Of a stretch of 64,000 nt of DNA, positions 8,600 to 38,266 are shown piece by piece (within the stretch, counting starts at the first letter, position 1; each line of letters begins with the position of its first letter). The position numbers and the translations under genes were made by a program. The stretch lies in the NCBI GenBank assembly GCA_036872755.1, contig JAVHNS010000003.1:310001-374000 (forward strand), in the 5' to 3' direction. The notes below the pieces were generated by a model. The model saw only the letters and a program-made list of their open reading frames with translations, made no database searches and was not told where the DNA came from. The stretch comes from Orbilia blumenaviensis (Eukaryota > Ascomycota > Orbiliomycetes > Orbiliales > Orbiliaceae).

Positions 8600-8929
8600 T
8601 GTAAGGTTATATGTGCGAGAGTGTGCGTGTCACGACGGTTGAGAATATGACCTTAGTTATGGTTATAGATTAAAAGACAAGGAGCTATATACATGACTGC
8701 TATCTATGCTTTATATACTGAAGGATATGCGTATCACAGCGTCAGGCCGCGGCTCTCTATTGCTTCCGGATCAAGGGAACTGAACTGACGTTGGCCCGAG
8801 GACCGAAGTTGCCCGGGTGGGTCTCCGGGTGGGTCGCCGCGTGTTCGTGTTGCCCGGACCGGGTAGCTCTAGCCGTTGTGTTGACCTTGTTGTATTTTGC
8901 GCACCACCGCGTGGGTGCGCGGCCTGACA
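8600..8929 (-). repeat. Element A 3' LTR (330 bp)
   Basis: It has TGTAAGG...CTGACA ends on the plus strand and I found no difference from the copy at 15364-15693. Confidence 0.96.
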
Positions 8930-9762: not shown

Positions 9763-10638
9763 ATGGCTGGCCAACTTGGTATGCGTACTATCGATATCGC
9801 GGAAGCGGTTCGTATTAACCTCGGTCCCCCGCTGCGTACCGCATGCGACCAATGTCAAACTGCAGGCTTTGCTTGCTACCCTTCCCCCGGTGACCACGAC
9901 GCTTGTTCTCGTTGCCGCAAGAGGCGACTCGGTGCGACTCGGCCTTGTCAATTTGGGGGTGTCAATTCTACAGCTGCTGGCTTCGCTGCTCGACCCGTTG
10001 CGACTCGCATGAGTCAACTTGTTCATCCGGTCACCCTGACCATGAGGATTCCTGCTGGTGTGGTGGTTCGTCGAGATTGGTGGGAAGCAGCCTTCTTTGA
10101 GGTTGCCCCAGTTGCTGTGGGTGCCGCGTCGGGTCGCTTCGACAATATTCCAGACTTCAACGCCCCCTCGCAGCAAATCGCAACTTTGGAGCACTTGTTG
10201 CTTCGAGGAGGTCTTCCCGTGGTTCCTGGGCCGAATTCTTTGGTTTCGCGTGTCGCTGCGTTGGAAAGCGCGCTAAGTTCTTTCGTTTCCTGTGGTTGTG
10301 GGGTTGGGGGTCCTCCAGCGGTTATTGGAGGTGATGGAGGTGATGGTGGGGATGGCGCTGCGGGAGGTGGCGATGGGGGTGGTGATGGAGGAGATGGGAG
10401 TGGTGGAGCTCCTCCCCCTGCGGGTGACGGCGGTGCGGGGGATGGAGGAGATGGCGGAACTGGTGGAGGTGGAGGAGGAGATGGTAGTGGGGCCGCTCTT
10501 TGTTATTGCGGTAGAAATGCGGGTCACCGCGGTCCTCACCGTGGTGGAAGGAGGAAGAAGAAGGATGGAGACGGGAAGACCCGTAAATATAAGGTCTCCA
10601 AGAGGAGAAGTCGTCCGGTTTGGTTGCATTATGAGTAG
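9763..10638 (+). CDS. Antisense accessory protein of element A with Zn2Cys6-like cluster
   Basis: This 291-residue protein is encoded on the strand opposite to gag and pol, convergent with pol and ending 181 bases from it. I chose the ATG at 9763; the frame is open upstream but has no ATG there. Cysteines at 28, 31, 38, 48, 51 and 62 follow C-x2-C-x6-C-x9-C-x2-C-x10-C, close to the fungal Zn2Cys6 pattern, with a basic RKRR stretch after the fifth Cys. A short heptad-like segment follows near residues 176-190, then about 80 residues rich in Gly and Asp, then a CYCGRNAGHRGPH motif and a strongly basic tail (KKK, KRRSR). No family is recognised beyond the cysteine pattern. DNA binding is inferred. 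It is the counterpart in position, orientation and cysteine pattern of the accessory gene of element B. Confidence 0.75.
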   Translation: MAGQLGMRTIDIAEAVRINLGPPLRTACDQCQTAGFACYPSPGDHDACSRCRKRRLGATRPCQFGGVNSTAAGFAARPVATRMSQLVHPVTLTMRIPAGVVVRRDWWEAAFFEVAPVAVGAASGRFDNIPDFNAPSQQIATLEHLLLRGGLPVVPGPNSLVSRVAALESALSSFVSCGCGVGGPPAVIGGDGGDGGDGAAGGGDGGGDGGDGSGGAPPPAGDGGAGDGGDGGTGGGGGGDGSGAALCYCGRNAGHRGPHRGGRRKKKDGDGKTRKYKVSKRRSRPVWLHYE

Positions 10639-10819: not shown

Positions 10820-13800
10820 TCAAAGTGTTCTTTTAAAATCTCTAATCTTAGCCTCAGCGTGCAGTAAGTGTTCTTCAGGCTCCCATGATGCGTCTGCTAG
10901 CGACCAACCTTTCCATTTAACCAAATAGTGCTTCGTCTCGGTGCGGCTCCGTGCGCCCTTCTTGAAATTATCCTCTGCTAATATCTTTTCTATTTCCCAT
11001 TCTTCCTCTCCCTCTACCTCGACATGCTGCGGCTCGGGGGGTGCTGGGTGGATTTCATTTATGATATATGGCTCTAGAAGTGACACATGGAAAACATTAT
11101 GTTGTCTCATCTTCTTAGGTAATGCTAGCTCATAGGCATGCGTCCCAATGCGGGCCGTGATTCTATATGGACCTAAGAACCTGGCTTCAAGCTTTGCAGA
11201 GGGTCGCTTAGTGTCTATATTCTTGCTAGAGAGCATAACCTTTTGCCCGACCTCGTATTCTGGTGTCTCGTCTCGCCTCGAGTCGCTGTACCTAGCTTGG
11301 TCATTTTGAGCCTGTTTCATCTCTAATTTGCAAGCCTGATGTAGCAATTTCAACTCCTCGATGCGTTCCTCTGCGGCTGGCACCTTATTTCTCACGAGGT
11401 GGTTCGCTTCGAACCGTGGGTGGTAACCATGTTTAGCAAAGAATGGGGTCATCTTAATTGTCACTTGATAAGTATTATTGTATGCAAACGCTGCGAGCGG
11501 AAGCAAGCCGACCCAGTCATTTTGCTTATAATTGCAATAGTTCCTTATCAGTTGTTCCAAGATCTGGTTGACCCTTTCTGTCTGACCGTCCGTCTCGGGG
11601 TGAAACGCGGTGGATTGCTTCCTTGCGATACCTGTCGCCTCGCAGAGACTCGCTATGAACTTAGAGGTGAAAACTCGTCCTCGATCAGACACAAAGTCGT
11701 CTGGAAGACCGTTATGAATTAAGTGTTTCACATAAGCTTGTGCTAGTTCTTCTGCTTGCGGCTCACCGCGAAGCGGTACAAAGTATGCAAACTTGGTTAA
11801 CCTGTCTACTACCACCCAAATTGTGTCAAATTCCGGGCTTGCGTCTCCCAGCGTAGGGTCTCGCGACGGAGGTAATTTGACAATAAAATCCATGGAAATA
11901 CTGCGCCACGGTGCGTCTGGCACCGGGAGTGGTAGCAGTTTTCCTTTCTTCAGCCTTCTAATTGTCTTGTTTCGCTGGCAGACGTCGCATCCCGCAATGT
12001 ATTTGTAAATAAATCCGGTGTATCCTGGGAAGTAATAATTCCTAGAGAACAATTCTTGTGTTTTACGATAACCGAAATGGCCTGCTAGAGGAGCGTCGTG
12101 TACGCGGTGTACCGCATCCTTACGCAGTTTCAAAACATTGGGTATGTATAATCTGCCTTCGAACCGCAGCGTGCCGTCTTCTTCTAATGTATAGCCTGTC
12201 GTATATGCCGTGTCGTCTCGCTGTATGGCGCTGATAATGCGTTTTACTTTCTCATCTTTGAGATACGCTTTCTTGATGTTATTGATGTCTTGTGAAAATC
12301 CAGCGGATATCAGTGCCAGGGTACCAAGTGGCCTACTGCGTATCGCTGCGACCAGCTGCCCTGCCTTCAGCAATGGAGGTGGCAGTGATCTATCATGTCC
12401 TTCTGTGTATTCTATCTGGCGAGACAATGCGTCTGCCGCCGCGTTATCCTTTCCTGGACGATATTGAATTGTGAAGTCATAGTCTGCTAGTTCCTCAGAC
12501 CATCTGACTTGTCTCGCATTGAGTCGCTTTGAGGTTGTGAAATAAGTTAAGCTTCGGTGATCGCTGTAAATAATGATTTGAAACTGGGCTCCCTTCAGGT
12601 ACGCCGCCCAGTGTCGCAGTGCCTCGACCACCGCTAGCATTTCTTGATCAAAAACCTCGTAGTTCCTCTCTGCTCCTGACATTTTTCTGCTCCAAAAACA
12701 GACAGGGTGCCAGCGACCCTCTTCGTCCTGTTGCGAGAGGCAGGCTCCAATTCCGAATCCAGAGGCATCGGTTTCGACCGCAGTGCGTCGCTTCCAGTCG
12801 TAGTATGGTAGTACTATTTCAGTTGTAAATTTTCTTTTGATGCGTTCGAATGCGGCTTGCTGCTCCTCGCCCCATTCCCATGTCTTCTCTTTTGATAAAA
12901 GTCTTGTAATTGGTTCTGCTATGGCGCTGTGCCTCGCAAGGAACCGGTGATAGAAGTTCACAAAACCTAGGAAGGATTGTAGCTGTTTTATATTCTGAGG
13001 AGCTTTCCATTGGTGTACAGCTTCTACCTTGCTCTCGTCCATCGAGATGCCGCGAGTCGACACGGTGAAGCCTAGGAAGTCCACTTTTTCTTTATGGAAC
13101 TCGCACTTTTCTGCTTTGACATATAATGATGCCGCTTTGAGTCGCTGCAGCACGGTGCGTACGTGTTCCACATGAGATTTGTAATCCTTAGAGAAGATTA
13201 GGATGTCGTCTAAATAAATAATAACGAAGGTATCTAGCAAGTCGCGGAACAACGCGTTCAGCAGCGACTGGAAGGTCGCTGGTGCATTCGTTAATCCAAA
13301 CGGCATTACTAAATATTCGTAGAGGCCATATCTTGTTCTAAACGCTGTTTTCCACTCCTCCCCCGCTGCGATACGCACCAAGTTATAAGCCCCTCTCAGG
13401 TCTAATTTAGTGAATATTTTGGCGCCCCGCAGCTGGTCGAGGAGTCCGTCTATTAAAGGTAGTGGGTACCGGTTTTTTATCGTTATATTATTAAGTGCCC
13501 GGTAGTCCACACAGAGCCGCAGTGAGCCGTCCTTCTTTTTTACGAAAAGAATAGGTGCCCCTGCTGGTGAAGAGGATTCGCGGATGAAGCCTTTCGACTC
13601 CATTTCCTCTATATATAATTTTAGTGCCTCATCTTCGGTTGGAGAAAGCTTATAAATTGGCCCGAAGGGAGGCGCGGTGTCTCGCACCAGTGGGATCTTA
13701 TGGTCCCAGGGCTGGTGTTCCGGTAGCTTATCTGCTGCTTCTTTTTCTCCTAGATCTGCGAAATCGGCGTATTCTTTTGGCATGTGCCGCATCGACTCGC

Positions 13801-14380
13801 TTTGAGAAGCAGCTTCTTTCAGGACCGTTGCTCCCACTAGTACGGAGTCTTCTAGTAGGGAGTCGAATTGTTCCGCTTCAACTAGTCCTATGGTGATAAC
13901 GCGAGGCCCTGCGGCTCGTCGCATTAGAAGATGGCCCGTATTCCAATTAATGTCTGGGTTATTTTTGCGTAACCACGCGAGTCCCAGTATGAGATCGAAT
14001 GATCTGATTTCCATGACATCAAAAGAAATAGATTCTTCAAAATTGTCTATTTTCATCCCCAAGTCTTCTGTTTTATGCGTGACGCTGCGGCCCAGTGAGG
14101 CGCCATTCACTCCTTCGAGTGGGATGACTTCATTCCTTCTCACTAGAGGTATGCCGTGCCTCGCCGCGAACCGCGTCGCTATGAAGTTGCTAGGTGCACC
14201 GCAGTCTATTAATGCTCTGGCTCGCACCGTCTCGCCGTTCCATGATAGTGTTACTTCTACTACCAAATGGTTGAAATATCCTTCCGGTAGTTTTGTTCCA
14301 CATATCGCAGCCAGCGTGACGCTGCGTATGACATAGGTACCCTTTTCTCCAGGCGACGGGAGTTCTGTCGCCTCCATTAT
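10820..14380 (-). CDS. pol: Element A Pol polyprotein (protease-RT-RNase H-integrase-chromodomain)
   Basis: Pol is read in the -1 frame relative to gag, entered by slippage at 14386-14380; its open frame extends upstream to 14455 within the gag overlap. In order: an aspartic protease with active site DCGA (14206-14195, Cys where Ser/Thr is usual); reverse transcriptase with YLDD (13216-13205); RNase H (about 12770-12420, TDAS motif); integrase with an HHCC zinc finger (about 12120-11970, CDVC) and a DD35E core (SDRGRVF and DGQTERVNQ motifs, about 11900-11560); a GPY/F module; and a C-terminal chromodomain (about 11010-10835, YLVKWKGW and SWEPEEHL). The frame is uninterrupted, so the enzyme set is probably functional. 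The chromodomain places it among chromoviruses, whose integrases are known to target heterochromatin marks. Confidence 0.96.
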   Translation of the reverse strand: MMEATELPSPGEKGTYVIRSVTLAAICGTKLPEGYFNHLVVEVTLSWNGETVRARALIDCGAPSNFIATRFAARHGIPLVRRNEVIPLEGVNGASLGRSVTHKTEDLGMKIDNFEESISFDVMEIRSFDLILGLAWLRKNNPDINWNTGHLLMRRAAGPRVITIGLVEAEQFDSLLEDSVLVGATVLKEAASQSESMRHMPKEYADFADLGEKEAADKLPEHQPWDHKIPLVRDTAPPFGPIYKLSPTEDEALKLYIEEMESKGFIRESSSPAGAPILFVKKKDGSLRLCVDYRALNNITIKNRYPLPLIDGLLDQLRGAKIFTKLDLRGAYNLVRIAAGEEWKTAFRTRYGLYEYLVMPFGLTNAPATFQSLLNALFRDLLDTFVIIYLDDILIFSKDYKSHVEHVRTVLQRLKAASLYVKAEKCEFHKEKVDFLGFTVSTRGISMDESKVEAVHQWKAPQNIKQLQSFLGFVNFYHRFLARHSAIAEPITRLLSKEKTWEWGEEQQAAFERIKRKFTTEIVLPYYDWKRRTAVETDASGFGIGACLSQQDEEGRWHPVCFWSRKMSGAERNYEVFDQEMLAVVEALRHWAAYLKGAQFQIIIYSDHRSLTYFTTSKRLNARQVRWSEELADYDFTIQYRPGKDNAAADALSRQIEYTEGHDRSLPPPLLKAGQLVAAIRSRPLGTLALISAGFSQDINNIKKAYLKDEKVKRIISAIQRDDTAYTTGYTLEEDGTLRFEGRLYIPNVLKLRKDAVHRVHDAPLAGHFGYRKTQELFSRNYYFPGYTGFIYKYIAGCDVCQRNKTIRRLKKGKLLPLPVPDAPWRSISMDFIVKLPPSRDPTLGDASPEFDTIWVVVDRLTKFAYFVPLRGEPQAEELAQAYVKHLIHNGLPDDFVSDRGRVFTSKFIASLCEATGIARKQSTAFHPETDGQTERVNQILEQLIRNYCNYKQNDWVGLLPLAAFAYNNTYQVTIKMTPFFAKHGYHPRFEANHLVRNKVPAAEERIEELKLLHQACKLEMKQAQNDQARYSDSRRDETPEYEVGQKVMLSSKNIDTKRPSAKLEARFLGPYRITARIGTHAYELALPKKMRQHNVFHVSLLEPYIINEIHPAPPEPQHVEVEGEEEWEIEKILAEDNFKKGARSRTETKHYLVKWKGWSLADASWEPEEHLLHAEAKIRDFKRTL

Positions 14381-15333
14381 TTTTTTGATCCCTTGTGCTG
14401 CGTGCCGCTGCGGCACTGCCTTGCCATGTGGCCAGATTTTCCACATTTGAAGCAAAGGTTGCTCGCTCTGTAACGCTTATACTCGCTGGGGGATAATCTT
14501 CTTTGCTGGAAGGCGTCTATTTCCATAGGATCTGGTTGATCTAATACCGGTGCGGCTTGCTGCGGTACGACTTGGGCTTGTGGGTTATGAGGTAAACTAT
14601 TTCGGGTTTGATGATTCTTGATATGTAGGTCTTGCAGTCCCTCGACGCGAACCGCTAACTGTATGAGCTCCTGTAGATCTTTGGGTCCCCCCGACATGCT
14701 GCCAGTCGCAGCGAGGATAGCCTTCTGAATTTTCTCTTTAAGGCCTTTGTGGTAAAGGGTACGTAGGGTGTCCTCATGCCATAGGGGTAGTTTGGCTCGT
14801 AGCGTGTTGAAGCGGGTCGTGTAGTCGGTAACTTTGCCTTCTTGTCGTATCTTCAGGATAGCAAGTCTGGCTACTTCTTCTTCGTTCAAGTCCCCGAAGT
14901 GAGTCGTGACGGCTCGCTCGAACGCCTCCCATGTTGCTAGCTCTGGGGGGGTTTTGCCTGTGTTCATCAGAGCCACTAGAGGTTCGGACCACTCAGCCGC
15001 AGTGCCTCGCAGCTGGTTGAGGGCGAAATTAATTTTGCGTTCCTCGTTATTTTCGAACATCCAGCGGTTGGAGTTAAAGAACAATCTCATCTGATGAATG
15101 AAGGCTCGCGTCTTGCCGCGGTCACCCGTAAATTCGTCTGGCCTATTAACCAGCTTTGCGAATTGGGTAGCTATAGCTAGACTGTCGTCTCTGGGTCGTG
15201 GGGCGAGCTGCTGCGTTCCACTGCTTCCCGAAGGTCCAGGACCCGAAGGTCCAGGACCCGTTGGGCTCTGTGGAGCGCTTTGCATTAACTCGTCCTCTCC
15301 GGTGGACGCTGCGGGTACTTGCGAGGCGCTCAT
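14377..15333 (-). CDS. gag: Element A Gag
   Basis: A 318-residue structural protein of the virus-like particle. The N-terminus is rich in Pro, Gly and Ser with a repeated GPGPSG segment. A helical capsid region of Ty3 type follows (roughly residues 50-230, with WEAFERAVTTHFGD and YTTRFNTL motifs). A single CCHC zinc knuckle, CFKCGKSGHMARQC, lies at 14454-14413 near the C-terminus. The ATG at 15333 is the first start after the 5' LTR and opens a fully coding frame. The gene ends in TCA AAA AAA TAA, so the -1 slippery heptamer abuts the stop codon; most ribosomes would make Gag and some Gag-Pol. Confidence 0.95.
   Translation of the reverse strand: MSASQVPAASTGEDELMQSAPQSPTGPGPSGPGPSGSSGTQQLAPRPRDDSLAIATQFAKLVNRPDEFTGDRGKTRAFIHQMRLFFNSNRWMFENNEERKINFALNQLRGTAAEWSEPLVALMNTGKTPPELATWEAFERAVTTHFGDLNEEEVARLAILKIRQEGKVTDYTTRFNTLRAKLPLWHEDTLRTLYHKGLKEKIQKAILAATGSMSGGPKDLQELIQLAVRVEGLQDLHIKNHQTRNSLPHNPQAQVVPQQAAPVLDQPDPMEIDAFQQRRLSPSEYKRYRASNLCFKCGKSGHMARQCRSGTQHKGSKK
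14380..14386 (-). promoter_or_regulatory. -1 frameshift site of element A (A AAA AAA)
   Basis: Seven A residues (minus strand) split A-AAA-AAA in the gag frame and are followed at once by the gag TAA. Slipping back one base leads into the pol frame (codons for K K I M E). The heptamer fits X-XXY-YYZ. I have not identified a downstream stimulatory structure. Confidence 0.8.
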
Positions 15334-15363: not shown

Positions 15364-15693
15364 TGTAAGGTTATATGTGCGAGAGTGTGCGTGTCACGAC
15401 GGTTGAGAATATGACCTTAGTTATGGTTATAGATTAAAAGACAAGGAGCTATATACATGACTGCTATCTATGCTTTATATACTGAAGGATATGCGTATCA
15501 CAGCGTCAGGCCGCGGCTCTCTATTGCTTCCGGATCAAGGGAACTGAACTGACGTTGGCCCGAGGACCGAAGTTGCCCGGGTGGGTCTCCGGGTGGGTCG
15601 CCGCGTGTTCGTGTTGCCCGGACCGGGTAGCTCTAGCCGTTGTGTTGACCTTGTTGTATTTTGCGCACCACCGCGTGGGTGCGCGGCCTGACA
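15364..15693 (-). repeat. Element A 5' LTR (330 bp)
   Basis: It appears identical to 8600-8929. U3 (higher coordinates) contains repeated GGGTGGGTC-type motifs and a GCGCACC/GGTGCGC hairpin at 15663-15684. The TATA box lies at 15481-15473. Confidence 0.96.
15473..15481 (-). promoter_or_regulatory. TATA box of the element A 5' LTR
   Basis: The minus strand reads TATATAAAG, 31-39 bases upstream of GTCTTTTAAT, the proposed RNA start that is complementary to the priming site. Confidence 0.6.
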
Positions 15694-15698
15694 TATAT

Positions 15699-17455: not shown

Positions 17456-18021
17456 TATTATAGTTAATTATATTAAATATATTTTAATATGTTAAATATG
17501 AGTTTATTTAATTTTAGATTTAATTTATAAATTAGATTTATAATATAAATATTTGGATTATAAGTTTAAAAATGAATTAAGTTAAAATTGAATTGTTTAT
17601 AAATATATTATATTAATAATATATTTTTAAAATAAAATATACAAAAAACATTATATATAATTTAGTATATTATATATATATAATGTTTATTTAAACATAT
17701 AATATTTAAATTTATAAATAATTTATATTTATATAAATAATATTTATATATATAAAAATTTTTAAATAATAATAATTTTAAAATTTTTTTTTAAATTTTA
17801 TTAATTAATTTATTAATATTTAATATATTTTATTTATTATTTTTATTTATTGAATTTAGTATATTTTTATTAAAAATTATATTATTTGATATTTTTATAT
17901 TTAATTTAACTTATTTTAAAAAAATAATTTGAATATTTTAAATTAAAAATATAATTAGTTAAAAAATATTAAGTTATTTTAGGAATTTCTTATTTAAGAA
18001 ATACCTAAAATAGGTGTAACA
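17456..18021 (+). repeat. R1 3' LTR (566 bp)
   Basis: It has the same length as the 5' LTR. Its start reads TATTATAGTTAATTATA where the 5' copy has TGTCACGGCCAGCCATA, so every C and G there except one has been converted. The last ~50 bases (ending GGTGTAACA) are less mutated. Confidence 0.9.
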
Positions 18022-18026
18022 ATAAT

Positions 18027-18816: not shown

Positions 18817-18821
18817 AATAT

Positions 18822-19387
18822 TGTTACATCTGTCCCGGGTATTTCTTAAATAGGAAATTCTTAAAATAGTCTAATATTCTTTAATTAATTATATTTTTAA
18901 TTTAAAATATTTAGATTATTTTTTTAAAATAAGTTAAATTAAATATAAAAATATTAAATAATATAATTTTTAGTAAGGGTATATTAAATTTAATAAATAA
19001 AAATAGTAAATAAAATATATTAAATATTAATAAATTGATTGATGGAGTTTAAAAAAAAATTTTAAAATTATTATTATTTAAAAATTTTTATATATATAAA
19101 TATTATTTATATAAATATAAATTATTTATAAATTTGGGTATTATATATTTAAATAAATATTATATATATATAATATATTAAATTATATATAATATTTTTT
19201 ATATAATTTATTTTAAAAATATATTATTAATATAATATATTTACAAATAATTTAATTTTGATTTGATTTGTTTTTAAATTTGTAATTTAAATATTTATAT
19301 TATAAATTTAATTTATAAACTAAATCTAAAGTTAAATAAATTTATATTTAATATGTTAAAATATATTTAATATAATTAATTATAATA
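18822..19387 (-). repeat. R2 3' LTR (566 bp)
   Basis: Its outer ~40 bases (TGTTACATCTGTCCCGGGTA) are nearly unmutated, while the inner end reads ATTAATTATAATA, the fully converted form of the TGTCACGG terminus. Confidence 0.88.
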
Positions 19388-27455: not shown

Positions 27456-28021
27456 TATTATACTTATTTTAGATATTTTCCAAATAAAAAATTTTTAAAA
27501 CAATTTAATATTCTTTAGTTAATTATATTTTTAATTTAAAATATTCAAATTATTTTCTTAAAATAAATTAAATTAAATATAAAAATATTAAATAATATAA
27601 TTTTTAATAAAAATATATTAAATTTAATAAATAAAAATAATAAATAAAATATATTAAATATTAATAAATTAATTAATAAAATTTAAAAAAAAATTTTAAA
27701 ATTAATATTATTTAAAGATTTTTATATATATAAGTATCATTTATATAAATACAAATTATTTATAAATTTAAATATTATGTACTTAAATAAACATTATATA
27801 TATATAATATACTAAATTATATATAATATTTTTTGTATAATTTATTTTGGAAATGTATTATTAATATAATATATTTGTAGATAATTTGATTTTAGTTTGA
27901 TTTGTTTTTAAATTTATAATTTAAATATTTATATTATAAATTTGATTTGTAAGTTGAACCCAGAGTTAAACGGGTTTATGTTTGACATATTAAGACATAT
28001 TTAGTATGGTTGGTCGTGACA
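27456..28021 (-). repeat. R2 5' LTR (566 bp)
   Basis: It starts TATTATACTTATTTT, the converted form of TGTTACACCTGTCCC, and ends TGGTTGGTCGTGACA. The last ~85 bases retain many G and C, in contrast to the rest. Confidence 0.88.
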
Positions 28022-28026
28022 AATAT

Positions 28027-29071: not shown

Positions 29072-29260
29072 TTAATTGTCACGGCCAGCCATACTAGGTA
29101 TGTCTTGGCGTGTCAAACATGAGTCCGTTTTCGCAGGCTGTTTCTCACACCGAGATGATTTTTATTATAAATATCCGGCGGGAGAAAACCATACCAGAAA
29201 AGAGACGGATTGGACTGTGTTGTGCCGACAACACAACTCCCAGAACAAACCATGCAGAAA

Positions 29261-29318
29261 GCGTTATGTGTGGCTTGGCGCGTTATGTGCACATAACGCC
29301 CTCCGGGGCACATAACGC
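29261..29318. promoter_or_regulatory. Symmetric four-copy GCGTTATGTG array in the element B LTR
   Basis: Two forward copies (29261-29270 and 29280-29289) and two inverted copies (29290-29299 and 29309-29318). The inner pair abut as a perfect 20-bp palindrome and each outer copy lies exactly 9 bases away, so the whole array is symmetric about 29289/29290. It ends 43 bases upstream of the TATA box. This layout is typical of a binding site for a dimeric or tetrameric DNA-binding protein. The binder is unknown; the element's own Zn2Cys6-like protein is one candidate. Confidence 0.75.
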
Positions 29319-29361
29319 CCAAGTCTATAGACGATTCACATTTGTATGGACGACGCTCATG

Positions 29362-29368
29362 TATATAA
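29362..29368 (+). promoter_or_regulatory. TATA box of the element B LTR
   Basis: TATATAA, 51 bases upstream of ATCGGTCAA (29413-29421), which is complementary to the priming site and so probably near the RNA 5' end. Confidence 0.6.
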
Positions 29369-29636
29369 GGACCTTTGAACGATGGCAGTCTCAGGATTCT
29401 TTCTTAGACTCCATCGGTCAACTTATCAATACTCAATACACTCTGTTTACTACCTTTACCCATTGAACCTAGTATCCCCTTACTAGGAGTTACACTATTT
29501 GATATCTCTATATTCAACCCAGCTTACCTTGAGAGAATAATCTGAATACTTTAGATTGAGAATACGATTAGCCAAAGAACGCTAGGCTGTTTTAGGAATT
29601 TCCTATTTGGGAAATACCCGGGACAGGTGTAACACT

Positions 29637-29645
29637 TTGACCGAT
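29637..29645 (+). promoter_or_regulatory. Element B primer-binding site, probably self-primed
   Basis: TTGACCGAT, two bases inside the 5' LTR, is the exact complement of ATCGGTCAA at 29413-29421 in the LTR. No tRNA-type TGG occurs at the junction. It parallels element A, but the match is only 9 bases and does not extend to the LTR edge. Confidence 0.55.
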
Positions 29646-29674
29646 CCGACTCTCAACGGTAAGGCGAGAATCGT

Positions 29675-32600
29675 ATGTCAAGCAATAGCAGTGACGCCGA
29701 ATATCACGACTTCCACGGCACTACTTACGGAATAGGAGACAATCTCTTTGATAGAGTAATACGTCTACCAGTTGCAACTCAAGATCAACAGACGCAGACA
29801 GAAGAATCATCTGCAGAACAGGTTGAATTACCCCCTCTAGAGCTAACCACTGACAGTGAAGATTTAGAATTAGTACGAATCAGTGTTCCGTCCGGACAAT
29901 ATAGAGACACTGAATACATCAGCGTTACGACTAGGATACAGCCGACGCTAGATCATTTTCGAAGACACGAACGACTACTTAGCACAGCATCAGACTTACT
30001 CAACGCAATGGCCAGCGTAGGAGGACCCTCAAGTGGACAGATTCCACCAACTGTGGAAGATCTCATGACGAGAATAGCCACTTTGGAAGTAGAATACAAG
30101 CAAGCTGTCGCAGACAAGGAAGAAGCGCTCTTACAGAAACAATTGGAATATGAAACCCTCAAAACGGATTACGACAAGGAAAAAGTCAGAACCGGTACTA
30201 ACAAGGCACCTAAAATCGGAGACCCAATAAAGTACTCTGGCAAACCCGAGAAAATTGATCACTTTCTCCACCAACTCTCAACCCATTTTGAAGTACAGGG
30301 TGACAGATTTCCAAATGACAGACTCAAGGTCATCTTTGCAGGAATGTACTTGGAAGACCCGATCCTCCAAGCATTCATCAACTACAATAATCATTATGTC
30401 AAGAATGGAACCGCCTCTGACGCCCACATCCTCAAGATCATGACGAATTTCGAGGAATTCGTCACGTTCCTTAAACAACAATGCGGAGAAGACGATAAGG
30501 TTAACAAGGCCCGTAGGGACCTTGAAGGACTCAAACAGACTAACTCAGCTCGTGGATACTTCCACAAGTTCAACCAAATCGCCCTTCTCACCGAATGGGA
30601 CGAATCCAACATCACCTACCGAGCCCGAGAAGGATTGAAACCAGAGCTGAAGGTTCAAGTCCTTCTCAGAGAACAACAACTCGGAAAACCCCTCGAACGC
30701 ATGGAAATGCAGAAGATGGTCATCGAAATCGACGACATCTACTGGCGAAATAAGCACGGTCAGGGAAAGAAGAATTTCCACGACCATGGTCCTAAGAAGG
30801 ACAAGAACAAGGGGAAGGCACCCCAGAACCAGAATAATAAAGGAAATGGGAACTGGCGTAAGAATAAGGATGGAAGTTTTACTCCAAATAAAACTTTTGG
30901 CCCAGCCCCCATGGATCTCAACACAACTCGACACAATTACCCGCACAACAAGGAGCCCAAGGGACCAAAATCTAACAGCCCTATTTGCTACAATTGCAAC
31001 AAATCTGGGCATATTGCTAGAAATTGCGACGAGCCACGACAAAATAACACATTTCAACAACGCAGAAATGTCAGATTCGCGAACACCAACTCTCCACCAC
31101 CACCTACTACGAAGAAAGTTCAAATGACACACCAGTCTACTCCTCAGGAGATCGAACAACTTCAGCAGCGAATTCTTGAGCAAGCCTCAAACTGCTCAAC
31201 CACCTCCGATCAACCTATGAACACCCCCGAGTCTACCACCCAAGAAGAAGAAACTGGACTTGAAGTTGCCCCAGTCACCCATGATCCAACTCCTCAAGAA
31301 TATCATTGGCTTTGGAACAATCCGACGCCTGGAGTTCATTTGAACTACGAGAGGCGCCCTAACGGAGAACTCTTCCAGGAGTACATGTCTGAAGGGATTC
31401 ACTATACCCGCCTAGTTCATATTGACCCCATACCACGAAATCCTAAGGTTCATCTACGATCCACTAATGTAGTAGAGGACCCCCTCACCAAAATGGATTT
31501 ATCACTCGCTTACGACCAAATCTCCCACAGATGGGAAGATCTTCCTATGGAACACTCAAGTGATGAAGAGGAAGCCTACAAAGAAGTTCCCTCTAGCCCT
31601 TCAACTACGTCCTACAGGAGCTGGGATGACGACGAAGCCTTTGCCCCTGAGACCTACGTTGACGACATAATCCCTATGGAACTCGAAGAAGGACAAGTCC
31701 GATGTATGGATTGTCAGAAAGGAACCCACAACTGGCGCGAAAGTTACAACCGTACAACTCAAAGTCGATCGGACCGCAGATGTCTAGACTGCTACACTAC
31801 TTTCACTGCTGGATGTGCCGGATACAGATATGCTGAAAACCGGAAATGGCCCTCCTCTAAGAAATACCAAGATGCCCTCTTCTATGCTAATAGCGACCTT
31901 TATGGAGTCGACTTTGCAGAAGATTGGGAAACCTACCATAAAGGAATCGAAGACGTCGATTCCCCTCCTACCTACGAACAAACCGATGAGATTGGATGCA
32001 TTGCTTCGGAATATTGGGAAGTTGCTCCCGATTGCCACCTGTGCGAGACCCGACCCTCAGATGTGAGACTCTACGACCACGCTCTCTATCTTTGCGATCT
32101 CTGCCACGATGGATGGAGCTTATACACTGGATATTTCAACTTCGTCCAACTTACCCCCTACGATCCCAATACCCCTTTTAATTGCAGGAAATGCCCCTGT
32201 CAATATCCCTTTCGAACCATCATTCAACTCTTAACTCACCAAGATACTTGCATCACTCAATTCGACACCGACTACGAGGAAGAAACCACAGAATACCACA
32301 GAAAGGACAAACACTATTGTACAGCCGGTACCAAACATATCACCAAGCACGGCTTGATCAAGAAGGAGAATCGCCGATGCCGACTCTGCAGAAAACCAGC
32401 TGTCTACTCGTTTTATGGAGGATACGACCTCTGTATCAACCACACCCGAAAATATGTCACCTTCACTGGAAATCCTCATGTCCTAGAAATCAAACCAAAT
32501 GCTCGAAACGTAGGATGGCGATGCATGTACTGCCGAGACCTCACCTTTGACACCTGGCTTGACTTCAGACATCATTTCCAGGAAGATCACCCCAACCACG

Positions 32601-32752
32601 GACAGGATGACCCTGCCTCACCTTACTACCGACTTAAAATCACCGATCTTAAACGAGGTCACCTTGAACCAAGACCCAACAGATTCCTCCACATCAACAA
32701 GATTGAATTTGCCGACGTCTATGGAAGAATGAACATGGAAGGAAAAAACTAA
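29675..32752 (+). CDS. gag: Element B Gag with long Cys-rich zinc-finger extension
   Basis: At 1025 residues this is about two to three times the usual Ty3 Gag length. A coiled-coil segment near residues 125-165 leads into a capsid-like helical region (about 175-350, with YSGKPEKIDHFL). A CCHC zinc knuckle, CYNCNKSGHIARNC, occupies residues 438-451. The ~570 residues after it are not typical Gag: an acidic, Pro-rich linker, then CxxC pairs near residues 677 and 702 (CMDC, CLDC), 787 and 806 (CHLC, CDLC), 837, 902 (CRLC) and a C2H2-like CMYC...HHFQEDH near 950. They resemble tandem zinc ribbons or fingers and may bind nucleic acid or protein. The ATG at 29675 is 40 bases after the LTR. The gene ends GGA AAA AAC TAA, a slippery site directly before the stop. 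Confidence 0.92.
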   Translation: MSSNSSDAEYHDFHGTTYGIGDNLFDRVIRLPVATQDQQTQTEESSAEQVELPPLELTTDSEDLELVRISVPSGQYRDTEYISVTTRIQPTLDHFRRHERLLSTASDLLNAMASVGGPSSGQIPPTVEDLMTRIATLEVEYKQAVADKEEALLQKQLEYETLKTDYDKEKVRTGTNKAPKIGDPIKYSGKPEKIDHFLHQLSTHFEVQGDRFPNDRLKVIFAGMYLEDPILQAFINYNNHYVKNGTASDAHILKIMTNFEEFVTFLKQQCGEDDKVNKARRDLEGLKQTNSARGYFHKFNQIALLTEWDESNITYRAREGLKPELKVQVLLREQQLGKPLERMEMQKMVIEIDDIYWRNKHGQGKKNFHDHGPKKDKNKGKAPQNQNNKGNGNWRKNKDGSFTPNKTFGPAPMDLNTTRHNYPHNKEPKGPKSNSPICYNCNKSGHIARNCDEPRQNNTFQQRRNVRFANTNSPPPPTTKKVQMTHQSTPQEIEQLQQRILEQASNCSTTSDQPMNTPESTTQEEETGLEVAPVTHDPTPQEYHWLWNNPTPGVHLNYERRPNGELFQEYMSEGIHYTRLVHIDPIPRNPKVHLRSTNVVEDPLTKMDLSLAYDQISHRWEDLPMEHSSDEEEAYKEVPSSPSTTSYRSWDDDEAFAPETYVDDIIPMELEEGQVRCMDCQKGTHNWRESYNRTTQSRSDRRCLDCYTTFTAGCAGYRYAENRKWPSSKKYQDALFYANSDLYGVDFAEDWETYHKGIEDVDSPPTYEQTDEIGCIASEYWEVAPDCHLCETRPSDVRLYDHALYLCDLCHDGWSLYTGYFNFVQLTPYDPNTPFNCRKCPCQYPFRTIIQLLTHQDTCITQFDTDYEEETTEYHRKDKHYCTAGTKHITKHGLIKKENRRCRLCRKPAVYSFYGGYDLCINHTRKYVTFTGNPHVLEIKPNARNVGWRCMYCRDLTFDTWLDFRHHFQEDHPNHGQDDPASPYYRLKITDLKRGHLEPRPNRFLHINKIEFADVYGRMNMEGKN
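32743..32749 (+). promoter_or_regulatory. -1 frameshift site of element B (A AAA AAC)
   Basis: The heptamer A-AAA-AAC is set in the gag frame and followed immediately by the gag stop TAA (32750-32752). It is one of the best-known retroviral -1 slippery sequences. A -1 slip continues as codons for K K L R K L Q D S into the ATG at 32770 of pol; the pol frame is open from 32707. Confidence 0.87.
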
Positions 32753-35700
32753 GAAAACTTCAGGACTCGATGCCGCCTGAAGGGTCCAAGTTACGCATCG
32801 TTAAAAATGGACCATCCAAACAACTTTCCTTACAGTCAACCAAAAATCATTTCTTTCTACCAGTCAACATTAACGGAAACTCCAGCACGTCTTTATTAGA
32901 CTGTGGAGCAGAAGATTCATTCATTCACCCCGAAGTTGTCAAACAACTTAAACTACCTTACATTCAGAAACTTCAGAAAACACATGTTACCGCCTTCGAT
33001 AATAGCCCTCTTGGAACAATCACTCACGAAACCACTTTCACACTTCTTATAAATGGACACTTGGAAACAATCACGATGGATATCCTAGAGACCCCCCACG
33101 AATTGGTTCTCGGATTCCCTTGGTTGGAAGAACATAACCCAAGTATTAACTGGAAAACTCGACACCTTGAATTCTCGAGATGCGATTGTAGAAAGATCTA
33201 TTCCAAGATCCGACCGGACAATCGACCCCCAAAAGAAGCTCATCACCGACTCACCCAACATATGTCACAAAAAGAAGTTAACAACCGTCTCCGAAACAAA
33301 CCTCATTCCATAAGACATGTTTTTCTCAAAATACGAGAAATTAACAAAGAAAAGAAGGAGATTCCAGATTGGATTCTCGAAGATAATAAATTGGTCTTTC
33401 AGCCCCCAGACGAAAGGGACCCCCTACCGAAAATCAATCAATTCACACATCATATCCCTCTAAAGGAAGGAACCCAACCAAAATCTCTACCTATATACGC
33501 ATGTACAGAAGAAGAAACTGCGGCTCTACGCGAATACATTGACGAAAACCTTCGCAATGGATTCATACGACCTTCTAACTCACCCGCAGGACACCCTATA
33601 CTATTCGTACCAAAACCTAATGGAAAACTGCGAATATGTATCGATTACAGAAGCTTGAACGACATTACGATCAAAGACACTGGACCCCTACCACTGATAA
33701 GCGAGTCTTTCGATCGCTTAACAGGAGCAAATTACTTCACCAAATTGGATATTATCAATGCCTACTACAATATCAGGATAAATCCAGGAGAAGAATGGAA
33801 AACGGCTTTTCGATGCCGCTACGGTCTATTTGAATACTTGGTTATGCCATTTGGGCTAACCAATGCACCAGCTTCTTTCCAAGCTTTTATGAACCATGTG
33901 CTTCGAGAGCACATAGATGTCATTTGTGTTGTCTACCTAGATGACATTTTGATTTTCAGCAAGACGCTGGGAAAACACAAGGAAAACGTCAACGCAGTGT
34001 TGAAATCCCTCCGGGACTACGACCTACGTGTGGCGCTAGACAAGTCAGAATTTGCTGTTACTGAATGCGAATTCTTAGGAGCCATAGTCACCTCGAATGG
34101 AATTAAGATGGACCCAAAGAAGGTTCAAGCCATTCAAGATTGGCCTCTCCCTGAGAATGTCAAAGAAGTGCAGTCATTTCTTGGACTTTGCAATTATTAT
34201 CGACGATTTATTCGGAAATACAGCTTCATGTCAGCAGCGCTTTCCGAACTCACCAAGAAACAACTGAAGTTTGAAATGACGCCCGAAAGAGTTCAAGCCT
34301 TTGAAACTCTGAAAAAATCATTTACCTCCGCCCCCATTCTCAAACTTTACGATCCGAAATTACCTATCAAGATTGAAACCGACGCCTCTACAGCAGCGCT
34401 AGGAGCCTGCTTACTCCAACTCCATAAGGACAAACAATGGTACCCCATTGCCTACATCTCTCACAAATTCGATGCTACGCAACTGCGATACGCTATTCAT
34501 GACAAGGAATTGATGGCTATTGTAGAAGCATGTCGAAAATGGCGCGTTTACCTCCAAAGCAAAGAACCTTTCACAGTTCTATCCGATCACAAGAACCTCA
34601 CTTACTTCCTAACCACGAAGGAACTTAGCAGACGGCAAGTTCGATGGTGGGAACTCCTCAGCGAATATAGCATGAAGATAATACACTTTAAAGGAAAAGA
34701 GAATGCTCTCGCAGATGCGATAAGCAGGAGACCAGACCTTGTCAAAGGCGTTGAACCTGACAAAGGAGCAATTCTCAAATATGGCGATACTAAGGACCAG
34801 ATTCTCATCAATAAATCCCTGAATCTGACAGAACACAATATCGAAGATGATCTTCGACAGAAAGTCCTCAAAGCCTATGAACAAGACCCTGTTGCACAAC
34901 GGATCTTGAAGAAAGAAGATACACCCCCTCACTTTGAATTAGTCGACGGAATTATTATGTTTCGAGACTCGTTCTACATCCCAACTAAGAAACTTCAAGA
35001 AGAAATCATCTCTTTACACCACGATCACCCAGCTCATGGTCATCTTGGAATTGACCGTACTCAGGAACTTATCACAAAGACTTATTTCTGGCCTCAGATG
35101 AGAAAGCAGATCGAAGAATACATCAAAACTTGCGATCTTTGCTGCAGAAACAAGCCTAACCGACACAAACCTTACGGAACCCTTCAACCACACGACGTAC
35201 CAAGTGCACCCTTCGAAGTTATTACTTACGACTTTGTACAAGGAATGCCTCCAGCACGAGACCCCCTCACCAACAAGCTGTACGACGAAATATTGGTTAT
35301 CACGGACAAGTTGACAAAAGTTGCTATTTTTGTCCCATGGGATAGCCAATGGGGAGCCAAAGAATTACAACAAGTCTACCACAACCATGTTTTCTCTAAA
35401 TATGGAATCCAACGAAAACACATTTCTGATCGCGACCCTCTTTTTACGAGCAAATATTGGCAGTCAATTATGAACCAAACTGGTACTAAATTGAACATTG
35501 CAACCAAAGGTCACGCTCAAACGGACGGAGCCTCCGAGAGACTCATCCAAACCCTTGAAATCTACCTTCGAAACTTCCTCAACTACGCTCAAAATAATTG
35601 GATACCCCTTCTACCCATGGCAGAATTCACCTACAACACTTCTCAACATTCAACTACTAAGTACACCCCGTACGAAGTACTGAGAGGATGGACGCCTAAG

Positions 35701-36330
35701 GCTATTCTTCCCCCTCTCACGCCGAAAGAAGTTGTCCCCGAAGCTGAAGAACATATGAAATCAATGAAGAATGCTCATAATATTCTCGTAAAAGACCTTC
35801 AGTTCTCACAAGAAAGAATGAGCCATTACTACGACAAACGACGGGAGGAAGCCCCAGATTTTAAAGAAGGAGATAAAGCATATCTGCTTGCACGAAACTT
35901 GAAAACCAAGCGACCTAATAAAAAACTTGATTTTCAGAAATTTGGCCCATACGTAATCAAGAAGAAACTTGGAAAGCACCATTTTGAACTTGACATACCT
36001 GGACCAACACGGATACACAAGACATTTCATGTCTCAGTCTTAGAAAGAGCCCCTCCAGGACTCAGAGAAGACCCGAACGAGATTGAAATCGAATACGACG
36101 ACTACGCGGAATACGAAGTTGAAAGAATCCTTGACGGACCTAACGGCGACAACGAATACCTTATTCGTTGGGCTGCTCCCTACGGACCAGAAGACGATTC
36201 TTGGCAACCAGAAGAAAATATTTCGCCACAAACTATACAGGATTACCTTAGGAACAGGGACCCACCCCATCAACCTGATGCCCCTGCACCTAAACGAGGA
36301 CGAGGAAGACCTAAGAAAAATAGAGATTAG
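32746..36330 (+). CDS. pol: Element B Pol polyprotein with chromodomain and AT-hook
   Basis: Pol lies in the -1 frame to gag; its first ATG is at 32770 (1186 residues from there), but expression by frameshift at 32743 is more likely. Using the ATG numbering: protease active site DCGA at 44-47; reverse transcriptase YLDD at 389-392; RNase H with TDAS about residues 535-660; integrase HHCC finger about 749-792 (CDLC); DDE core motifs YDFV, SDRDPLF and DGASERL; a GPY/F module (FGPYVI); and a chromodomain about 1110-1160 (YLIRWAAPYG, SWQPEENI). The last residues carry an AT-hook, KRGRGRPKK (about 1175-1184), after the chromodomain. No stops interrupt the frame. The pairing of chromodomain and AT-hook would suit integration into AT-rich heterochromatin, where B actually sits. 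Confidence 0.96.
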   Translation, partial: KLRKLQDSMPPEGSKLRIVKNGPSKQLSLQSTKNHFFLPVNINGNSSTSLLDCGAEDSFIHPEVVKQLKLPYIQKLQKTHVTAFDNSPLGTITHETTFTLLINGHLETITMDILETPHELVLGFPWLEEHNPSINWKTRHLEFSRCDCRKIYSKIRPDNRPPKEAHHRLTQHMSQKEVNNRLRNKPHSIRHVFLKIREINKEKKEIPDWILEDNKLVFQPPDERDPLPKINQFTHHIPLKEGTQPKSLPIYACTEEETAALREYIDENLRNGFIRPSNSPAGHPILFVPKPNGKLRICIDYRSLNDITIKDTGPLPLISESFDRLTGANYFTKLDIINAYYNIRINPGEEWKTAFRCRYGLFEYLVMPFGLTNAPASFQAFMNHVLREHIDVICVVYLDDILIFSKTLGKHKENVNAVLKSLRDYDLRVALDKSEFAVTECEFLGAIVTSNGIKMDPKKVQAIQDWPLPENVKEVQSFLGLCNYYRRFIRKYSFMSAALSELTKKQLKFEMTPERVQAFETLKKSFTSAPILKLYDPKLPIKIETDASTAALGACLLQLHKDKQWYPIAYISHKFDATQLRYAIHDKELMAIVEACRKWRVYLQSKEPFTVLSDHKNLTYFLTTKELSRRQVRWWELLSEYSMKIIHFKGKENALADAISRRPDLVKGVEPDKGAILKYGDTKDQILINKSLNLTEHNIEDDLRQKVLKAYEQDPVAQRILKKEDTPPHFELVDGIIMFRDSFYIPTKKLQEEIISLHHDHPAHGHLGIDRTQELITKTYFWPQMRKQIEEYIKTCDLCCRNKPNRHKPYGTLQPHDVPSAPFEVITYDFVQGMPPARDPLTNKLYDEILVITDKLTKVAIFVPWDSQWGAKELQQVYHNHVFSKYGIQRKHISDRDPLFTSKYWQSIMNQTGTKLNIATKGHAQTDGASERLIQTLEIYLRNFLNYAQNNWIPLLPMAEFTYNTSQHSTTKYTPYEVLRGWTPKAILPPLTPKEVVPEAEEHMKSMKNAHNILVKDLQFSQERMSHYYDKRREEAPDFKEGDKAYLLARNLKTKRPNKKLDFQKFGPYVIKKKLGKHHFELDIPGPTRIHKTFHVSVLERAPPGLREDPNEIEIEYDDYAEYEVERILDGPNGDNEYLIRWAAPYGPEDDSWQPEENISPQTIQDYLRNRDPPHQPDAPAPKRGRGRPKKNRD

Positions 36331-36684
36331 CATACTTTGTAGATTTTCGACCTACAAGGATATGGCCTCTCTACCCAACCAGTTCCTACACTTACGAATT
36401 TTCTTTACAAACATCCACCTCCACAGACACACGGTCTGAACAGACACCTACGGTGTTGATCGTCCAACCACTCTTCGACCCTCTCCAGATACCTTATTTC
36501 CTCAACCAGCAGAACCCTGTACTCTGGCCGCGCTAACGAGCGACTGCGCAGAAGCTGTATCGATAGAGCGATACCACGAATTATTGGAGTCAACGACTCA
36601 GCGCGAATCATAGCAAGATAACAAGGCATGATTTGATTTGAAAATGAGAAGTTACGAATACATGACAGGAAACCAGCCAAAGTT
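36331..36684. other. Spacer between pol and the convergent accessory gene of B
   Basis: These 354 bases separate the tail-to-tail 3' ends of pol and the accessory gene. They presumably hold both 3' untranslated ends. I see no further gene; overlapping short frames look like chance. Confidence 0.5.
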
Positions 36685-37383
36685 TCAGATAGTACTCTGA
36701 AGGAAATCCTCCATGGAAAACGCGAGATAACTCTCATCCCACCCAGCAGAAAAATCCACCGCATCCGCTGGGATGTCGCAGAAGAAGTCAAGCACCTCAT
36801 CAGGCGCTGACGAACCTTCACCAGCCCCTTCTTCAACGATCGGATCATCTCCGAATATCATATCATTTTCTATGACTCTCTGTTCTTCATGAAGAAGAGA
36901 TTCTCGATACTTCCGCGCGATTACTGAAGCCTCAGTGGATTGACGTTTTAATTCAGCCGCAACAGTGTTGAACTCAGCCAGAAGCTCTGTGAGCTTTGTC
37001 TGACCTTCGATGACTTTTTGATGTGCTATTTCATACCGAGCAGAAGTTTCTTCCAATTCTTTGAACTTCTTGTCTCGAATTTCCGCAATACGATCCACTA
37101 AAGATTTTGGATTAGAAACACCCCACAAAGCGGAGAAAAACAAAAATCACTTACAAGGAATTGCATTGCATTTTCCTACTCTGCCCTGTCTATGACAGAC
37201 TTCGCACTTGATGCTCTTTTCCAACATGACGCAAATATGACCGTTCGCGACGCAGTGTGAACACGGAACTGCAGCCTCTAAACCTTCTGACTTGAACCGC
37301 TCAAGAAAGATGGCCCTTCTTCGTTTTGCTTGGACGCGATTCTCTGATCTTTTTTTAGGTTTTTGAATGGCGCTCCGTTGCAT
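36685..37383 (-). CDS. Antisense two-exon accessory gene of element B, Zn2Cys6-like regulator
   Basis: Exon 1 is 37383-37155 and exon 2 is 37097-36685, joined by a 57-nt intron with donor GTAAGT (37154-37149), branch CTAAT (37115-37111) and acceptor TTTAG. Without splicing the frame stops within three codons of the donor; splicing yields 213 residues in frame. After a basic N-terminus (KKR, KRRR), cysteines at 41, 44, 51, 60, 63 and 72 fit C-x2-C-x6-C-x8-C-x2-C-x8-C, the canonical fungal Zn2Cys6 spacing. A long charged coiled coil follows (about residues 77-155), then an acidic, hydrophobic C-terminus (DEVLDFFCD, MEDFLQ) resembling an activation domain. A DNA-binding transcription regulator is the natural reading, inferred from layout. 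The intron means this gene is transcribed separately from the genomic RNA. The relic in R1 shows the gene is old in the family. Confidence 0.82.
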
Positions 37384-37694
37384 GATCAGAATGAAAGATT
37401 TGATATTATTTTGTATGTATGAAAGAATATTTTGTGGTTTAAGTTTTGAAATTTAGTTATGGTGCGAATTGCAGTTATTTATGTTTGATTTTGATTACAT
37501 AATCATGTAACGTGATCATGAAGGCTAAGCCTTCGGACACGAGAATTCTTGTACACAAATTTCTCCCAGACGGTTTTCCCGTACGGTAGAATTTTGTAGA
37601 CGAATTTTGTACAAAGGCCCTTTACCCAGTTTTGTTGCATCTCCTATGTGCGAGAAGATCCCGCATGGGAATTTCCCTTTTGGGAGTTTCCCTT
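37384..37694 (-). promoter_or_regulatory. Probable promoter region of the B accessory gene
   Basis: About 310 bases between the accessory-gene start and the polypurine tract, with AT-rich and short repeated segments such as GGGAATTTCCC and GGGAGTTTCCC. No coding frame. A promoter for minus-strand transcription must lie here or in the 3' LTR. Confidence 0.35.
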
Positions 37695-37708
37695 GAAGGA
37701 GGAGATAG
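37695..37708 (+). promoter_or_regulatory. Element B polypurine tract
   Basis: GAAGGAGGAGATAG abuts the 3' LTR and would be the plus-strand primer. Confidence 0.8.
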
Positions 37709-38266
37709 TGTCACGGCCAGCCATACTAGGTATGTCTTGGCGTGTCAAACATGAGTCCGTTTTCGCAGGCTGTTTCTCACACCGAGATGATTTTTATTAT
37801 AAATATCCGGCGGGAGAAAACCATACCAGAAAAGAGACGGATTGGACTGTGTTGTGCCGACAACACAACTCCCAGAACAAACCATGCAGAAAGCGTTATG
37901 TGTGGCTTGGCGCGTTATGTGCACATAACGCCCTCCGGGGCACATAACGCCCAAGTCTATAGACGATTCACATTTGTATGGACGACGCTCATGTATATAA
38001 GGACCTTTGAACGATGGCAGTCTCAGGATTCTTTCTTAGACTCCATCGGTCAACTTATCAATACTCAATACACTCTGTTTACTACCTTTACCCATTGAAC
38101 CTAGTATCCCCTTACTAGGAGTTACACTATTTGATATCTCTATATTCAACCCAGCTTACCTTGAGAGAATAATCTGAATACTTTAGATTGAGAATACGAT
38201 TAGCCAAAGAACGCTAGGCTGTTTTAGGAATTTCCTATTTGGGAAATACCCGGGACAGGTGTAACA
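37709..38266 (+). repeat. Element B 3' LTR (558 bp)
   Basis: It looks identical to 29077-29634. The GCGTTATGTG array is at 37893-37950. The flanking TTAAT at 38267-38271 matches the left target duplication. Confidence 0.97.

What the first reader, a model, noticed from the sequence alone, without database searches (positions are those of the whole stretch)
36685..37383. Spliced antisense Zn2Cys6-like gene inside a Ty3 retrotransposon
Element B carries a gene opposite to gag-pol. A 57-nt intron with GTAAGT donor, CTAAT branch and TAG acceptor joins two frames into a 213-residue protein with canonical Zn2Cys6 spacing, a coiled coil and an acidic tail. An intron in antisense orientation cannot be removed from the genomic RNA, so it survives retrotransposition and marks a separate transcription unit. 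An element encoding its own transcription-factor-like protein would be a self-regulatory system. Accessory genes have been reported in some Botrytis Gypsy elements; I do not know whether this one is related.
Basis: partly seen in the sequence, partly recalled or inferred. Interest (0 to 1): 0.9.

Follow-up and report, generated by a model that had tools for sequence, protein, structure and literature searches.

The report
Spliced backwards gene in fungal retrotransposon
A jumping element in a fungal genome carries, written backwards behind its replication genes, what looks like a real, spliced gene for a small cysteine-rich protein, and a distantly related element nearby carries a similar one; this suggests, but does not prove, that such elements regulate themselves.

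Summary
Element B (29077-38266, identical 558-bp LTRs) carries a 213-aa antisense gene, 37383-36685, with a 57-nt intron, between pol and the 3' LTR; 12 genomic copies are identical. RIP-mutated relics were compared with RIP-type changes set aside. Four form a sister allele, B': exon 2 has 18 shared changes, none at codon position 2 (P 1e-4), 9 synonymous (3.5 expected), and a 2-nt deletion lies in the intron. Exon 1 shows no such constraint (4 of 31 synonymous), although its six Cys codons changed only by RIP (not significant alone). The pol end of three B' relics shares 0 changes in 1065 sites; divergence sits in the gene and in U3. Element A (pol 37% identical) has an antisense gene with a similar Cys6 pattern. 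Zn2Cys6 membership is not met: spacing fits, but Pfam finds nothing and the basic first loop is missing. Antisense genes at this place are a known kind (brtn of Boty, plant aORF-3R); homology to brtn was not testable, and a Botrytis host is not supported. Function is inferred, most likely an element-encoded regulator. Expression is unshown.

The parts
29077..29634 (+). 5' LTR of element B, 558 bp, identical to the 3' LTR; 5-bp target duplication TTAAT outside
29663..32752 (+). gag ORF of element B (1029 aa; Retrotrans_gag 229-327, zinc knuckle 441-457)
32707..36330 (+). pol ORF of element B (protease, RT, RNase H, integrase H2C2 and core, chromodomain)
36685..37097 (-). exon 2 of the antisense gene: candidate coiled coil (37095-36862) and acidic tail (36861-36688), stop codon 36687-36685
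37098..37154 (-). 57-nt intron, GTAAGT donor, CTAAT branch-like site, TAG acceptor, in-frame TGA inside; 2 nt shorter in 4 of 4 B' relics
37155..37383 (-). exon 1 of the antisense gene, ATG at 37383
37168..37263 (-). Cys6 cluster C-x2-C-x6-C-x8-C-x2-C-x8-C (residues 41-72)
37384..37708 (-). leader and presumed promoter region of the antisense gene, up to the 3' LTR (inferred)
37709..38266 (+). 3' LTR of element B, 558 bp
37763..37954 (+). variable block of the LTR (U3 by position): three haplotypes among relics
8600..8929 (-). LTR of element A, 330 bp, identical to its partner (3' LTR in element sense)
9763..10638 (+). antisense gene of element A, 291 aa, uninterrupted, Cys6 cluster spaced 2-6-9-2-10
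10820..14476 (-). pol ORF of element A, 37% identical to pol of B over 1185 aligned columns
14377..15333 (-). gag ORF of element A
15364..15693 (-). LTR of element A (5' LTR in element sense)

Best explanation
The gene is a genuine accessory gene of a recently active Ty3/Gypsy element with a chromodomain. It lies antisense between pol and the 3' LTR, has its own spliceable transcription unit, and encodes a small protein: basic N-terminus, six-cysteine presumably zinc-binding module, likely helical dimerisation region, strongly acidic C-terminus. Most likely it works as an element-encoded regulator: a dimer that binds nucleic acid through the basic, cysteine-bearing half, adjusts transcription of its own element, probably at the LTR U3 or the neighbouring leader, and contacts partner proteins through the acidic tail. 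Shown by sequence: place, orientation, gene structure, selection on exon 2, Cys codons not changed except by RIP in the sister allele, an intron that tolerates frame-breaking change, divergence concentrated in this gene and in U3 in that allele. Inferred: zinc binding, dimerisation, nuclear action, the target, and expression itself.
For: Twelve copies identical over the gene. In the B' relics exon 2 has 18 shared non-RIP substitutions with codon positions 8/0/10 and 9 synonymous (null 3.5, P 0.0025; position 2 P 1e-4); the six cluster Cys codons differ only by RIP-type change (Cys 41, 44, 51 covered in 3 relics, Cys 60, 63, 72 in 4). A shared 2-nt deletion lies in the intron in 4 of 4 B' relics, while their shared exon-1 indels (+2/-2 about 7 nt apart, in the 3 relics covering that part) cancel. 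Over the 54 relics of the first round, kinds of indel number 10 in the 57-nt intron, 21 in 642 exon sites and 40 in 679 flank sites (intron against exons P 7e-5, exons against flanks P 0.026). Pol end of three B' relics: 0 changes shared by two or more in 1065 sites, against 49 in 639 exon sites. The other divergent block is U3 37763-37954 with 26 shared changes, against 1 in the other 366 LTR sites. An element with pol only 37% identical carries an antisense Cys6 gene at the same place, itself with signs of selection.
Against: No expression data. No Pfam or NCBIfam family above its cut-off, no PDB-sequence match at E below 0.4, no protein-database relative, though these searches may hold little fungal sequence. 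Exon 1, the half that should touch DNA, shows no purifying selection: 4 of 31 synonymous, 5.0 expected; over both exons together 13 of 49, P 0.07. The Cys codons alone give P 0.14 (0 of 6 changed against 10 of 26 other cluster codons), and one relic outside B' (L055) has a non-RIP change at Cys 60. The B gene occurs with two U3 types (26 and 20 rows), so U3 and gene are not strictly matched. CGG-triplet pairs are not enriched (P 0.31) and the heptad contrast is weak (P 0.10). The exon-1 model (mean pLDDT 71.6, no alignment) does not show the two-helix GAL4-type pattern.
Confidence: 0.42

Rival explanations
1. A post-transcriptional or particle factor: the protein binds the element's RNA or Gag (export, packaging, copy-number control by interference), not DNA.
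For: Basic N-terminus (net +8 in residues 1-40) and an acidic tail would suit RNA and protein contacts; the cysteine module does not match a DNA-binding family.
Against: An own antisense unit with an intron separates its expression from gag-pol, which suits a regulator better (inference); B' divergence coincides with U3 divergence.
Confidence: 0.22
2. A counter-defence protein that dampens host silencing (RNAi, RIP or heterochromatin), diversifying under an arms race.
For: Heavily RIP-mutated relics abound; between B and B' exon 1 changes amino acids at about the rate of random placement while the Cys codons stay; the gene diverges while the pol end does not (in element A).
Against: At least 54 relics holding this gene were RIP-mutated, so it gives no visible protection against RIP; no homology to known suppressors was found.
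Confidence: 0.13
3. The antisense RNA, not the protein, matters: transcription across the 3' end interferes with the sense RNA or feeds small RNAs.
For: Antisense transcripts of retroviruses can act as RNA (abstract of PMC10186651); antisense placement gives this for free.
Against: Codon-position bias and excess of synonymous change in exon 2 point to a protein; an intron matters less for an RNA-only role.
Confidence: 0.1
4. A captured host gene piece or passenger without function for the element.
For: No relative in the databases tried; exon 1 looks unconstrained between B and B'.
Against: Selection on exon 2 and a similar gene at the same place in a second family. Genome searches with each exon gave 12 identical places and otherwise only places broken by stop codons (52 of 64, 61 of 73), none that looks like an intact host gene.
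Confidence: 0.05

Closest known systems
brtn, antisense gene of Boty-like elements of Botrytis cinerea (Zhao et al. 2011; paper not held, seen only as cited in passages of PMC7264820, PMC8365987, PMC4227169 and PMC5987419)
aORF-3R genes of plant elements (Grande1, RIRE2, Retand, PvRetro13; section 5 of PMC7264820)
   Same: Place and orientation; conserved; function unknown
   Different: Plant hosts; no Cys6 or intron mentioned in the section read
HBZ of HTLV-1 (abstract of PMC10186651; spliced bZIP details recalled)
   Same: Antisense protein gene at the 3' end of a retroelement with its own transcript; a works-like comparison only
   Different: A bZIP protein of a retrovirus of people; no sequence relation claimed
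Zn2Cys6 (GAL4-type) fungal regulators (domain order recalled)
   Same: Cys spacing within the allowed range; order Cys6, helical region, acidic part
   Different: No Pfam match; basic residues missing between Cys 2 and 3; model not of that pattern

Membership tests
Zn2Cys6 (GAL4-type) regulator | Cys spacing C-x2-C-x6-C-x5-12-C-x2-C-x6-8-C (recalled) | tested here: met
   2-6-8-2-8 in B; element A, 2-6-9-2-10, exceeds the last interval
Zn2Cys6 (GAL4-type) regulator | Match to the Pfam model | tested here: not met
   No Zn_clus hit up to E = 1 for B or A
Zn2Cys6 (GAL4-type) regulator | Basic residues in the first loop (PROSITE PS00463 as recalled) | tested here: not met
   Pattern fails for B and A
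Zn2Cys6 (GAL4-type) regulator | Two short helices, each after a CxxC | tested here: inconclusive
   Single-sequence model, mean pLDDT 71.6: helix only after the second CxxC; fold search switched off
Zn2Cys6 (GAL4-type) regulator | Coiled-coil dimerisation region after the cluster | tested here: inconclusive
   Heptad contrast P 0.10
Zn2Cys6 (GAL4-type) regulator | Zinc and DNA binding | not testable with these tools
   Needs protein
brtn of Boty-like elements | Antisense gene between pol and 3' LTR | tested here: met
brtn of Boty-like elements | Sequence homology to BRTN | not testable with these tools
   Paper and sequence not held
brtn of Boty-like elements | Boty backbone (primer sites) | tested here: not met
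   Both primer sites absent from the window at up to 3 mismatches; one of them searched in the genome gives a single 2-mismatch place. A Boty-like relative with other primer sites is not excluded
Ty3/Gypsy element with chromodomain | gag, protease, RT-RNase H, integrase in this order, chromodomain, LTRs, 5-bp target duplication | tested here: met
aORF-3R accessory genes | Present in most copies of the family and conserved like other element proteins | tested here: inconclusive
   12 copies with the gene and 12 with the pol ORF, gene identical; exon 2 constrained, exon 1 not; less conserved than the pol end in the B' relics

The most novel reading that the evidence does not exclude
The antisense gene and the U3 form an exchangeable regulator-and-target module, a retrotransposon counterpart of phage immunity regions: a sister allele with a strongly changed cysteine half and its own U3 sits on a backbone that is otherwise nearly the same where examined, and a distantly related family in the same genome carries the same kind of gene, so that each element would regulate itself but not its rivals.
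Probability: 0.13. Interest if true: 0.88.

Novelty: new variant of a known kind. Interest (0 to 1): 0.62.

Why it matters
Antisense accessory genes of LTR elements have been listed for years with unknown function. Here one has a clear gene structure, measurable selection despite RIP, a plausible domain order, and an allele that differs where a regulator and its target would differ. That turns an 'unknown extra ORF' into a testable proposal of self-regulation by a fungal retrotransposon, and the comparison with element A suggests a shared theme across Ty3 families. If exon 1 is really under diversifying pressure, it would also point to competition between elements or with the host.

Tried and rejected
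Host as Botrytis cinerea: first assumed from genome size (note), then dropped. Two Boty primers and one Bc-hch primer from the table of PMC11595591 were tried; the Boty pair is absent from the window, one of that pair has a single 2-mismatch place in the genome, and the Bc-hch primer has none at up to 2 mismatches. Relatives elsewhere: protein database, viral contigs, PDB sequences, NCBIfam: none convincing. Depletion of shared variants in exons against non-exon sites is significant at a threshold of 4 relics (5/642 against 22/736, P 0.003) but not against the 3' flank alone (P 0.21), nor at a threshold of 2 over all 54 relics (30/642 against 38/736, P 0.71; there codon positions 1/2/3 are 7/4/19); not used as main proof, and three of those five exon sites are an A/T-run alignment artefact at codon 143. 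An early count on relics L049, L022 and L023 (8 of 15 synonymous, P 0.0014) weakened to 13 of 49 (P 0.07) over both exons with the four B' relics; the signal is in exon 2 only. Exon indels do occur among relics (21 kinds; the commonest in 4 and 3 relics), and relic L074 has two unshared ones; I read them as decay after RIP. Element A relic L077: 32 changes with 15 synonymous (P 0.018), but many lie in a glycine-rich stretch with doubtful alignment; leaving out codons 181-262 gives 11, 7 synonymous. The other three A relics looked at (of 10 broken places, 4 were fetched) have 0, 0 and 1 non-RIP change. CGG-type sites: not enriched. Two other loci with RT or integrase hits hold no antisense Cys6 in the 3.4 and 2.5 kb looked at; C12:1445457 and C2:3208162 were not looked at. 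In one search two of 52 rows are set aside: L049 is the relic of L085, and L022 lies at a contig end, so its LTR is not held.

Full report
What is there. Element B spans 29077-38266 with two identical 558-bp LTRs and a 5-bp target duplication. Gag (29663-32752) and pol (32707-36330) carry the domains of a Ty3/Gypsy element with a chromodomain. The exons share one frame; the intron removes an in-frame TGA. No sense-strand open stretch longer than 67 codons lies in 36331-37708, so the codon statistics are not borrowed from a long gene on the other strand.

Copies. The genome (42.46 Mb, 23 contigs, unnamed) holds 12 copies of the gene identical over 699 nt. A search with exon 1 gives these 12 and 52 further places, all 52 with stop codons (such counts are lower bounds). 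I aligned 8 of the 12 intact copies and 54 relics in a first round, with scoring that sets C-to-T and G-to-A changes apart, and two more relics later. Most relics differ from the live gene almost only by RIP-type changes. The intron is present in 66 of 66 aligned rows (L070 repeats L024), as expected if copies arise from the sense RNA only. Kinds of indel among the 54 relics number 10 in the 57-nt intron, 21 in 642 exon sites and 40 in 679 flank sites (tests).

Selection. Relics L049, L022, L074 and L075 share many non-RIP changes and form a sister allele, B'. In exon 2, 18 changes shared by at least two fall on codon positions 1/2/3 as 8/0/10, and 9 are synonymous (null 3.5, P 0.0025; none at position 2, P 1e-4). 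In exon 1, 31 changes fall 8/13/10 with 4 synonymous (null 5.0): no sign of purifying selection, perhaps relaxed or diversifying. Over both exons, 13 of 49 are synonymous (P 0.07). The exons differ at Fisher P 0.006 to 0.026, by threshold and relics used. In B' none of the six cluster Cys codons is changed other than by RIP, while 10 of 32 codons of the cluster region are; by itself this is not significant (P 0.14). One relic outside B', L055, has a non-RIP change at Cys 60. A shared 2-nt deletion sits in the intron of all four. The shared exon-1 indels (+2 and -2 about 7 nt apart), in the three relics that reach that part, cancel; L074 has two further unshared exon indels. The P values come from placing changes of the same type at random and take no account of phylogeny.

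Divergence by block. In the three B' relics with pol fetched, the pol end has 0 non-RIP changes shared by two or more in 1065 sites, with 1, 19 and 5 in all, unshared ones included, per relic. The exons have 49 shared in 639 sites (P 4e-22). In the LTR, 37763-37954 carries 26 shared changes and several indels, the other 366 sites one; with so many indels some of the 26 may be alignment artefacts. Four more lie in the flank at 37622-37648, and about ten in 37392-37545, some of them common to other relics. The blocks thus have different histories: recombination or exchange seems to have placed an older gene and U3 on a common backbone. The B'-type U3 was seen with the B' gene in 3 of 3 relics and in 0 of the 19 B-type rows in which its diagnostic sites are covered; shared descent of three relics alone could give this. 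The B-type gene is found with the B-type U3 (26 rows) and with another type, U3-2 (20 rows), plus one mixed row. Strict pairing of gene and U3 is therefore not shown.

Element A. The other intact Ty3 family (10 unbroken copies of its antisense gene; LTRs of 330 bp) has an antisense gene at the same place: 9763-10638, 291 aa, no intron needed, Cys spacing 2-6-9-2-10. The two pols are 37% identical. Compared directly, exon 1 of B and the A protein align in the Cys register but without significance (E 3.9). One copy of each of two live versions of A differ at 15 places and one 1-nt indel upstream of the ATG and nowhere in the CDS; recombination could explain this too. One relic has 11 changes in the gene outside the glycine-rich part, 7 synonymous, and 2 in 1300 pol-side sites; three other A relics have 0, 0 and 1. 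The two Cys6 patterns are the only ones in the six-frame translation of the window. Homology and convergence cannot be told apart here.

What it is like. By place and orientation it is an aORF-3R gene, the kind reported in plants and, as brtn, in Boty (section 5 of PMC7264820; passages of PMC8365987, PMC4227169 and PMC5987419). The Zhao et al. 2011 paper itself is not held, so I do not know whether brtn has an intron or this cysteine module. One paper reports a Monilinia transcript similar to both pol and BRTN (63% identity; passage seen), a hint that brtn-like proteins cross genera. By the tests run the protein is not a Zn2Cys6 family member, though it may work like one. In the listings and passages that I saw, the ten searches of the paper library gave no report of a Cys6 or Zn2Cys6-type antisense gene in a fungal LTR element; most subscription papers are outside that library.

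Mechanism. I favour an element-encoded regulator made from its own antisense unit and acting on the element's LTR or leader (0.42). The antisense intron keeps the gene's expression separate from the sense RNA and leaves a lasting mark of a second transcription unit. Against this stand the unconstrained exon 1, the lack of enriched CGG-type sites, and the B-type gene with two U3 types. No transcript was seen, so every functional step is inference.

Noticed in passing
29663-32752: Gag of element B is very long: about 570 residues follow the zinc knuckle before the ORF ends, and pol overlaps it by 46 nt in another frame, so a frameshift is implied. Only a weak Pfam hit (E 0.2) lies in the extra part.
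   Followed up: no
37763-37954: The U3-side block of the LTR has at least three haplotypes among relics, while the rest of the LTR varies much less.
   Followed up: partly
1689-8599 and 15694-28026: Very AT-rich relic DNA (1-6% G+C in the five 100-bp blocks sampled beside element A) with inverted arms of 4.25 and 1.8 kb at 91% and 88%.
   Followed up: no
9021-9762: Two live versions of element A differ at 15 places here and nowhere in the antisense CDS or on to 10819, suggesting exchange between subfamilies.
   Followed up: partly
10320-10500: Element A's antisense protein has a long glycine/aspartate-rich stretch; relic L077 has four indels in the gene, all multiples of 3. A second small Cys motif and a basic tail follow.
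   Followed up: no
L088 (G000:C7:1118300-1121700): A different locus with RT and integrase hits in a 1947-aa open frame and no antisense Cys6 in this stretch.
   Followed up: partly
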